From NCBI GenBank assembly GCA_014378525.1, contig JACMNL010000132.1:1-64000 (forward strand): DNA of 64,000 bases, read 5' to 3'. Below the pieces are notes generated by a model, which was not told the DNA's origin, did not search any database, and was given only the letters and a program-made list of their open reading frames with translations. Shown piece after piece: positions 55,385 through 57,568 of this stretch (positions within the stretch are counted from its first letter, which is position 1; each line of letters opens with the position of its first letter). A program made the position numbers and the translations under genes. Origin of the DNA: Bacteriovorax sp. Its GTDB lineage: Bacteria > Bdellovibrionota > Bacteriovoracia > Bacteriovoracales > Bacteriovoracaceae.

Positions 55385-55717
55385 ATGATCATTTTAAAAA
55401 CACTGCTTCTATTTATCGTTACTTCACTCACAGAAATCATTGGATGTTATCTTCCATATCTCTGGCTGAAAGAAGGAAGGTCAGTATGGCTTTTGTTACC
55501 TGCGGCCTTGAGTCTATTCTTGTTTTCCTGGTTGCTCACACTTCATAATACAAACGCAGGACGAATATACGCTGCCTATGGTGGAATCTATATTTCAGTA
55601 GCTCTTTTCTGGATGTGGTTTGTAGAAGGTAAGAGACCTGATCATTGGGATGCTATTGGAATTTGTATAATTCTAATTGGTAGCGGGATTATATATTTTT
55701 CTCCGCACAGAATTTAG
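55385..55717 (+). CDS. YnfA/UPF0060 family small membrane protein
   Basis: A 110-residue protein with four helices and the YnfA pattern: [67 protein letters not shown]. The family is an SMR-like putative efflux protein group. Length is right for the family. It lies 25 nt after the ATPase gene and could be part of the importer operon, though a functional link is not evident. Confidence 0.9.
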
Positions 55718-55736: not shown

Positions 55737-55811
55737 TGGTAGTCGGAATAGGGATCGAACCTACGACCACTTGGATGTCGACCAAGCGCTCTACCACTGA
55801 GCTATCCGACT
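55737..55811 (-). tRNA. tRNA-Val(GAC)
   Basis: On the minus strand the 75-nt cloverleaf has a perfect 7-bp acceptor stem (AGTCGGA/TCCGACT), D arm GCTC-AGTGGTA-GAGC, anticodon arm CTTGG-TCGACAT-CCAAG, T arm with TTCGATC loop, discriminator A and an encoded CCA. The anticodon is GAC (valine). Position 33 is C rather than the near-universal U, which is unusual. A Asp(GTC) reading would need a shifted loop and breaks the stem. Confidence 0.93.
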
Positions 55812-55918
55812 ATTGATGAGCGCCTATACTAAGATCCCTCGAGTTTCCTGTCAAACTTTCTGTTGTGTGTTATCTGTTTTTTTCGTGCCTGCAGTTTCCA
55901 CATAAGCTATATTTAAGC

Positions 55919-57568
55919 ATGCAGAAAAATAGAATGCCTCTCAACTTCGGTGGCCTCCTTTGGGGCCAGTTAAAAGAATTTAAAATTTACTACATCTTCG
56001 GTGCCATCGCACTTGTTGCCACTCACGAAATCCAAAGTCAGCTGCCATTTATGGCAAAAGAGCTGGCGGATTTTGTCGCGAAAAATAACAATGAACTTCG
56101 TCCGAGTTTATTTTTTTTATGTGCGCTGGGAATTCTGGTTTTCAGAACGTCTTCAAGAATTTTATTTTTTTATCCGGCCCGTTTATTACAAAAGTTTTTG
56201 CGTGCAGAACTTCTGGAGAAACTGGAATCCAATACACCTCAGAGATTTCGTCATTTAAATTCAGGTCAGCTTTTTCAATACCTCTCGGGGGACATTGATC
56301 AGATCAGGGCCTTGATCGGGTTCGTTGGTCTTCAAGGTGCAAACTTTATTATCGCGTTTTGTATTCTTGTTCCGAAGATGATGGCGTTTAATGCCGGCCT
56401 GTTAGTTGCGCTGACTCCGATGCTTGCGTGTTTTATTATTTTCACAGTTGTTGTTTCACGAAACAGAAAATATTTTAAACTGACTCAGGATATGCAGGGT
56501 GAAGTTCAAAACTTAATCATGGAAAGTTATGTAGGGAAGAGAACGATTAAAAACTTCCACTCAGAAGACTCGTTCATGAAACTCTTTTCTGAACTCTCTT
56601 TGAAAGAACTTTATTATTTTTATAAATCGAGTTTAGGTGTTTCCATTTCAATGCCACTGATTGGATTTGGAGTCGGGCTCTCACTTTTATGGGGTGCCCA
56701 GATTATTAAGGCCAACCATCTCGGTGCAACTTCCTTAATTTTATTTTCAGGATTTATTTTCTTATTCATGGAGCCGATGGGGTATCTTTCATGGATTGGG
56801 ATCGTCGTTTCACGATCGCACGCTTCTTGGGAGCGTTTAAAAGACCTGGATTTAGCTCTGACAACTTCCATTGAAGCTGAAGAGAAGCTGAGAAATTTAA
56901 ACCTTGAAGTTGTAGAAAACAATTACAAACTCCCTTACTGGGAAAACTCACTGACAATTAATTTCCGGCCGAATGCCTGGAACGTGATGATTGCCAAAAC
57001 CGGTCACGGTAAAAGTGAGATGTTATTAAAGCTTTCAGAAGTTTTAAGACAGCGCGGGAAAAATATCAGCTTAGTTGCGCAGGATCCATATATCTTCAAC
57101 GATACGATCGAGCGAAACGTATTTCTTGGAAAAAAAGAAACGGATGCTGAGCGCGAGTATGCAAAAACTATTTTAAAAATTCTGGGGCTAGATTATTTAG
57201 AGCCGAACCTTGAAAATCTTATGAAGATGGAAGTGGGAGAAAACGGAAAACGTTTATCCGGCGGGCAGGCGAAAAGATTAAGCCTGGTTCGAAGCCTGAT
57301 GAGTGAAGCGGAAATTCTCATCTGGGATGACCCGTTTTCATCTGTGGATTTAATTCTGGAAAAAGAAATTATCCTGGAATTAAAAAAACATCCGATTATG
57401 AACAACAAAACAATTATTTTGACGAGCCACCGTCTCTCGACCGTCAGACACTCCGACTATCTGGTATTTCTGGATAAAGAGGATGGAGTGGTTGAAGAAG
57501 GAATGGTTAACGATTTACTAAGAGAAAACAGCAAGACGTATGAATACTTCCAAAAACAAATGGTATAG
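55919..57568 (+). CDS. ABC exporter subunit A (degenerate ATP site half)
   Basis: A membrane domain of about six helices precedes a nucleotide-binding domain. I start at the ATG at 55919 (549 residues); the upstream GTG/ATG region looks like promoter. The Walker A is AKTGHGKS (first Gly replaced by Ala), the signature RLSGGQAKRLSLVRSLM is canonical, and Walker B ends WDDP so the catalytic Glu is Asp (about 471). The H-loop His is present. This is the pattern of the non-catalytic half of heterodimeric exporters. It overlaps the partner gene by 29 nt. Confidence 0.88.
   Translation: MQKNRMPLNFGGLLWGQLKEFKIYYIFGAIALVATHEIQSQLPFMAKELADFVAKNNNELRPSLFFLCALGILVFRTSSRILFFYPARLLQKFLRAELLEKLESNTPQRFRHLNSGQLFQYLSGDIDQIRALIGFVGLQGANFIIAFCILVPKMMAFNAGLLVALTPMLACFIIFTVVVSRNRKYFKLTQDMQGEVQNLIMESYVGKRTIKNFHSEDSFMKLFSELSLKELYYFYKSSLGVSISMPLIGFGVGLSLLWGAQIIKANHLGATSLILFSGFIFLFMEPMGYLSWIGIVVSRSHASWERLKDLDLALTTSIEAEEKLRNLNLEVVENNYKLPYWENSLTINFRPNAWNVMIAKTGHGKSEMLLKLSEVLRQRGKNISLVAQDPYIFNDTIERNVFLGKKETDAEREYAKTILKILGLDYLEPNLENLMKMEVGENGKRLSGGQAKRLSLVRSLMSEAEILIWDDPFSSVDLILEKEIILELKKHPIMNNKTIILTSHRLSTVRHSDYLVFLDKEDGVVEEGMVNDLLRENSKTYEYFQKQMV

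What the first reader, a model, noticed from the sequence alone, without database searches (positions are those of the whole stretch)
55737..55811. tRNA-Val(GAC) with C at position 33
The anticodon loop is TCGACAT, so base 33 is C instead of U, which forms the U-turn in nearly all elongator tRNAs. The stems are otherwise perfect and CCA is encoded, so the gene looks functional. It may be a lineage-specific change or a specialised tRNA.
Basis: partly seen in the sequence, partly recalled or inferred. Interest (0 to 1): 0.5.

Follow-up and report, generated by a model that had tools for sequence, protein, structure and literature searches.

The report
Valine tRNA lacking the U-turn uridine
A bacterial valine tRNA that looks intact in every other way carries C where almost every elongator tRNA carries U at position 33, and the same exchange turns up repeatedly in this one tRNA (anticodon GAC) across distant bacteria, so it is a real, recurring exception to a textbook rule and not a sequencing error.

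Summary
Window 55737-55811 (minus strand) is tRNA-Val(GAC) with loop U32-C33-G34-A35-C36-A37-U38, all stems paired and CCA encoded. The other 27 tRNAs found in this genome have U33. It is not a sequencing error: 11 of 14 genomes of the genus carry C33 in this gene, with compensated stem changes. It is also not unique to the genus. C33 occurs in tRNA-Val(GAC) of four other genera of the family, in another Bdellovibrionota family, and in Alphaproteobacteria, Acidimicrobiia, other Actinomycetota, Melainabacteria and Patescibacteria. It is concentrated in this tRNA: in two surveys over Bdellovibrionota every credible C33 tRNA was Val(GAC), as were 8 of 11 in 240 Alphaproteobacteria. A ValRS tree needs several changes within the family. 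Most C33 genomes showed no second, U33 copy. The genus lacks CmoB, and 61% of valine codons in the window are GUU/GUC. Best reading: a working elongator tRNA whose anticodon turn is made with C33, tolerated or tuned in the GAC context. Editing to U33, relaxed selection and altered decoding are not excluded without tRNA sequencing and decoding assays. My literature searches found no description of this.

The parts
55737..55811 (-). tRNA-Val(GAC) gene, 75 nt including encoded CCA
   Evidence: ARAGORN; Rfam RF00005 66.9 bits; sequence
55774..55780 (-). anticodon loop U32-C33-G34-A35-C36-A37-U38 (plus strand 5'-ATGTCGA-3')
   Evidence: sequence, ARAGORN loop 'tcgacat'
55779..55779 (-). position 33: C in the RNA (G on the plus strand), normally U
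   Evidence: sequence, loop assignment
55826..55854 (-). promoter-like site TTGACA-17-TAGTAT upstream of the tRNA; 10 of 12 matches, but about one such site is expected by chance in this stretch
   Evidence: consensus scan, 1 found against a shuffled mean of 1.0
55865..57568 (+). divergent neighbour: ABC transporter (PF00664 + PF00005); tRNA-ABC order conserved in the genus and seen in sister genera g19 and g23
   Evidence: Pfam; blastn of flanks
55385..55717 (+). convergent neighbour: YnfA/UPF0060 family protein
   Evidence: Pfam

Best explanation
This is a working elongator tRNA-Val that reads GUU and GUC and makes its anticodon turn with C33 in place of U33. Shown: C33 in the gene, an intact and selected tRNA structure, recurrence of C33 in this isoacceptor, and no other Val(GAC) gene found in the genome. 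Inferred: C33 keeps the 2'-OH contact to N7 of the purine at 35 (A35) and loses or replaces the U33 N3-H to phosphate-36 bond; the A35/C36 context and backup by tRNA-Val(UAC) make this tolerable, perhaps with a small drop in decoding speed. Whether C33 is merely tolerated or selected for tuning is not known.
For: C33 is identical in 11 of 14 genomes of the genus, including a 6-contig, 99% complete one. tRNA identity stays 91-100% in the C33 relatives while the flanks fall to about 67-78%. Across six distinct genus sequences every stem cell is paired, with 11 of 21 pairs changed on both sides, against 3.2 in shuffles. A73, A35 and C36, known valine identity bases (own knowledge), are kept. Elsewhere 58 C33 Val(GAC) genes use 15 different anticodon stems with 290 of 290 pairs formed, so C33 sits in sound tRNAs on many backgrounds. 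It is the only Val(GAC) gene found in its genome, and 34 of the 37 C33 genomes that matched a looser pattern showed no U33 copy. CmoB was not found in any of the 14 genomes of the genus, and GUU+GUC are 61% of 1,210 Val codons in the window, so the tRNA probably carries real load. C33 is known in eukaryotic initiator tRNA (PMC9023262) and in Sulfolobales tRNA-Cys(GCA) (PMC7668247).
Against: No expression, charging or decoding data. In yeast, base changes at 33 degrade translation efficiency, and U33C in tRNA-Gln gives a phenotype (PMC3664417). Two genus members (G004, G009) show no Val(GAC) gene in incomplete listings, so it may be dispensable.
Confidence: 0.66

Rival explanations
1. Relaxed constraint: tRNA-Val(UAC) reads all four GUN codons, so Val(GAC) is nearly redundant and C33 is a mildly harmful change that drifted to fixation.
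For: Val(GAC) not found in G009 (99% complete) and G004 although Val(UAC) is present. cmo5U-type modified tRNAs read expanded codon sets in bacteria (PMC6599085).
Against: Other four-codon-box G34 tRNAs that the pattern covers (Ala GGC in G000 and G009, Thr GGU in G009 and G004) do not show C33 in the family. C33 occurs both with CmoB (g8, g12, g17, g24) and without it (g1). GUU is the commonest Val codon. Stems stay under selection. The tRNA listings are incomplete: only 150 candidates were scored per genome.
Confidence: 0.16
2. C-to-U editing at position 33 restores U33 in the mature tRNA.
For: Base editing of tRNAs exists elsewhere (own knowledge: C8 to U8 in Methanopyrus, C-to-U in organelles). 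It would explain why a near-universal base is free to vary in DNA.
Against: It would need a deaminase in many unrelated phyla. No bacterial C-to-U tRNA editing enzyme at 33 is known to me. Both UC and CC at 32-33 occur. Not tested directly.
Confidence: 0.08
3. C33 is selected to weaken or sharpen decoding (lower efficiency or altered GUU/GUC and near-cognate discrimination), as G33 does in Candida tRNA-Ser(CAG).
For: Recurrent, anticodon-specific occurrence. G33 lowers decoding efficiency in Candida (PMC1991585, PMC11415595). U33 Val(GAC) genes seen in the family all have U32, whereas C33 ones have U32 or C32.
Against: No functional data; no correlated genomic feature found.
Confidence: 0.08
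4. C33 is selected at the DNA level: U32-U33-G-A-C-A spells TTGACA, the consensus -35 box, inside the gene, and C33 removes it.
For: All credible U33 Val(GAC) genes seen in the family read TTGACA at positions 32-37.
Against: At 16-18 nt spacing the T arm begins TTCRA, TCRA or CRA, which at 16 or 17 nt lacks the -10 A at its second position. C32U33 would remove the box as well but was not seen.
Confidence: 0.02

Closest known systems
Canonical bacterial tRNA-Val(GAC)
   Same: anticodon, A73, stems, 7-nt loop with A37; expected to read GUC and GUU
   Different: C33 instead of U33
Eukaryotic cytoplasmic initiator tRNA-Met with C33 (PMC9023262)
   Same: C33 in a functional tRNA
   Different: initiator, used in the P site, anticodon CAU; the present one is an elongator
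Sulfolobales tRNA-Cys(GCA) with C33 (PMC7668247)
   Same: elongator with C33 in a clade
   Different: archaeal, another amino acid, one clade; here the change recurs over several bacterial phyla in one anticodon
Candida tRNA-Ser(CAG) with G33 and bacterial tRNA-ProX with A33 (PMC1991585, PMC11415595)
   Same: natural elongator tRNAs without U33
   Different: those are mistranslating or reassigned tRNAs; here anticodon and identity bases agree on valine

Membership tests
tRNA-Val(GAC), elongator | cloverleaf with four paired stems and 3' CCA | tested here: met
tRNA-Val(GAC), elongator | anticodon GAC and valine identity bases A35, C36, A73 | tested here: met
   identity set from own knowledge
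tRNA-Val(GAC), elongator | U33 (near-universal in elongators, but not what defines the valine isoacceptor) | tested here: not met
   C33 in the gene; mature RNA not examined
tRNA-Val(GAC), elongator | charged with valine and decodes GUC/GUU | not testable with these tools
   needs charging and decoding assays
pseudogene or degraded tRNA | broken stems, loss of conservation | tested here: not met
   all pairs kept with compensation; tRNA 91-100% identical in C33 relatives
initiator-type tRNA with C33 | anticodon CAU and initiator features | tested here: not met
   anticodon GAC; CAU tRNAs are separate genes
mistranslating tRNA (ProX or Candida Ser type) | identity elements of another amino acid than the anticodon | tested here: inconclusive
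   A73, A35 and C36 fit valine; charging not measured

The most novel reading that the evidence does not exclude
Bacterial tRNA-Val(GAC) is a special case in which the U-turn uridine is dispensable: C33 has been fixed many times because the GAC anticodon loop turns and decodes well, or usefully differently, with C33, giving a natural C-turn elongator class.
Probability: 0.5. Interest if true: 0.62.

Novelty: new variant of a known kind. Interest (0 to 1): 0.47.

Why it matters
U33 is treated as invariant in elongator tRNAs and as the base that forms the U-turn. An anticodon-specific, repeated loss of it gives natural pairs of tRNAs (U33 and C33 from related genera) with which the need for U33 in decoding can be tested directly. 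It also warns tRNA annotators not to score C33 Val(GAC) genes as pseudogenes.

Tried and rejected
Sequencing error: rejected by the same C33 in 10 other assemblies of the genus. Pseudogene: rejected by full pairing with compensation. A duplicate or specialised copy beside a normal one: no other Val(GAC) found in this genome, although G135, G147 and G210 elsewhere also have a U33 copy. Dependence on CmoB (cmo5U34 in Val(UAC)): no correlation. A -35 box explanation: weak. Phage origin: only 80-90% matches to tRNA genes of phages, none covering 80% of the query. Genus g36 first seemed to lack Val(GAC) in the pattern search; one genome (G104) turned out to have a U33 copy that the pattern missed, so absence by pattern alone is treated as weak. 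One of the 59 collection matches (L080) is not a tRNA.

Full report
Observation. ARAGORN calls tRNA-Val(gac) at 55737-55811 on the minus strand, the only tRNA in the window, and Rfam's tRNA model scores it 66.9 bits against a gathering score of 29. The loop between the stems CTTGG and CCAAG is TCGACAT, which puts U at 32, C at 33, GAC at 34-36, A at 37 and U at 38. All stems pair, A73 is followed by an encoded CCA, and a TTGACA-17-TAGTAT site lies upstream (about one such site is expected by chance in that stretch). The other 27 tRNAs recovered from the genome all have U33; the genome is a draft and the listing lacks some expected species such as Trp and Cys.

Not an error. Of 14 genomes held for the genus, 11 have C33 in this gene with the same 17-base anticodon arm, among them a 6-contig, 99% complete assembly. 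One (G008) has U33 with a different arm, and in two (G004, G009) no Val(GAC) gene was found by three searches, although the tRNA listing scored only 150 candidates per genome. Where the flanks could be compared, the gene keeps its neighbour, a divergent ABC transporter, in the genus, in G008 at the same place, and in sister genera g19 and g23, which have U33. C33 therefore most simply arose at an existing Val(GAC) locus. Among six distinct genus sequences (five C33, one U33), every one of 126 stem cells is paired and 11 of 21 pairs show changes on both sides, against 3.2 in shuffles. Much of this signal is the contrast with G008; within the C33 set alone, changes on both sides remain at alignment columns 1-71, 3-69, 7-65 and 49-63. 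This is a tRNA under structural selection.

How far C33 reaches. In the family, 129 genomes searched for Val(GAC) with any base at 33 gave U33 in most genera, but C33 also in g8 (G022), g12 (all seven genomes), g17 (G053) and g24 (G062), there as TCGACAC or CCGACAC. On a ValRS tree of 27 genomes the C33 label needs seven changes, at least five of them forced by well-supported branches; changes count gains and losses, and one gene tree is weak evidence for exact numbers. A scan of one genome for each of 84,980 species with a strict pattern (TCGACAT loop, GGTAGAGC D arm, GGTTCRA T arm) found 59 stretches, of which 58 are Val(GAC) genes with C33 and one is not a tRNA. By record title they lie in Acidimicrobiia and relatives, Micromonosporaceae, Pseudonocardiaceae, Alphaproteobacteria, Bdellovibrionota, Melainabacteria, Gastranaerophilales and Patescibacteria, some of them named isolates. 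They use 15 different anticodon stems, all fully paired. The true number is higher, since the pattern omits TCGACAC and CCGACAC loops and other arms.

Specific to one anticodon. A pattern for C33 with any anticodon, in tRNAs with a TAGAGC D arm and GTTCRA T arm, covers about 10-12 tRNA genes in each of the four genomes examined. In 124 genomes of the family its only credible tRNA matches were 12 Val(GAC). In Bdellovibrionota outside the family it gave six more, again all Val(GAC), all in one other family, f11. In 240 Alphaproteobacteria I count 11 credible tRNAs: 8 Val(GAC), one Ala(CGC), one Arg(CCU) and one with anticodon AAA; the script's laxer filter of four pairs also lets through a few matches that I judged by eye to be chance (CTG in the family; GCC and TGG in Alphaproteobacteria). 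In 26 genomes chosen for C33 Val(GAC), only one other C33 candidate appeared. C33 is thus concentrated in Val(GAC). In 34 of the 37 C33 genomes that matched a looser Val(GAC) pattern, no U33 copy was seen; G135, G147 and G210 have both.

How it most likely works. The tRNA is the only Val(GAC) gene found in this genome. Valine codons in the window's long ORFs are GUU 43%, GUC 18%, GUA 19% and GUG 20%, so most valine codons are those that a GAC anticodon reads. CmoB, which makes cmo5U34 and would help Val(UAC) to take over, did not reach the family cut-off in any of the 14 genomes of the genus but did in the other C33 genera of the family; other wobble-uridine enzymes (TrhP, TrhO, TrmR) were not tested. 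I therefore favour a working elongator whose loop turns with C33. The U33 2'-OH contact to a purine at 35 is described in PMC9023292 and should be open to C as well, since it does not use the base; the N3-H bond to phosphate 36 (own knowledge) is not. That the A35-C36 context makes this tolerable is inference. Whether the change is neutral, slightly harmful or tuned is open: in yeast U33C in tRNA-Gln has a phenotype (PMC3664417), and G33 in Candida lowers decoding.

Origin. Outside its genus the nearest relative found is a C33 gene from a proteobacterial metagenome-assembled genome with the same anticodon arm (L085, 87.5% to the G003 sequence), closer than any U33 gene of its own family that was read in full (79% at most). 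This may mean horizontal exchange or convergence; 72 bases cannot decide, and the U33 genes compared were few.

Novelty. C33 is known in an archaeal elongator (Sulfolobales tRNA-Cys) and in eukaryotic initiators. I rate it a new variant of a known kind.

Noticed in passing
L152 (G009:C141), L130: Genus member G009 has tRNA-Val(CAC) beside Val(UAC), and no Val(GAC) was found: possibly a rearranged valine tRNA set.
   Followed up: partly
L221 (G061), L222 (G056): Genera g23 and g19 carry a divergent ValRS that scores below the valS cut-off, unlike the other full-length ones in the family: possible replacement by a foreign ValRS.
   Followed up: no
L073, L110: Dense tRNA arrays in Plantactinospora (26 tRNA calls in 8 kb) and Dactylosporangium (13), with odd members such as 8-base loops and a C33 tRNA-Leu(GAG) without a long variable arm.
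   Followed up: no
G142:C5:130160-130197, G178:C146:979-1017, G340:C101:20752-20790, G322:C35:215285-215323: Rare C33 tRNA candidates with other anticodons: UCG, Ala(CGC), Arg(CCU) and AAA.
   Followed up: no
family f1: CmoB is patchy within the family: over the cut-off in 56 of 124 genomes, in none of the window's genus and in none of the g36 genomes searched.
   Followed up: partly
U33 Val(GAC) genes, e.g. L066: Positions 32-37 of U33 tRNA-Val(GAC) spell TTGACA, the consensus -35 hexamer.
   Followed up: partly
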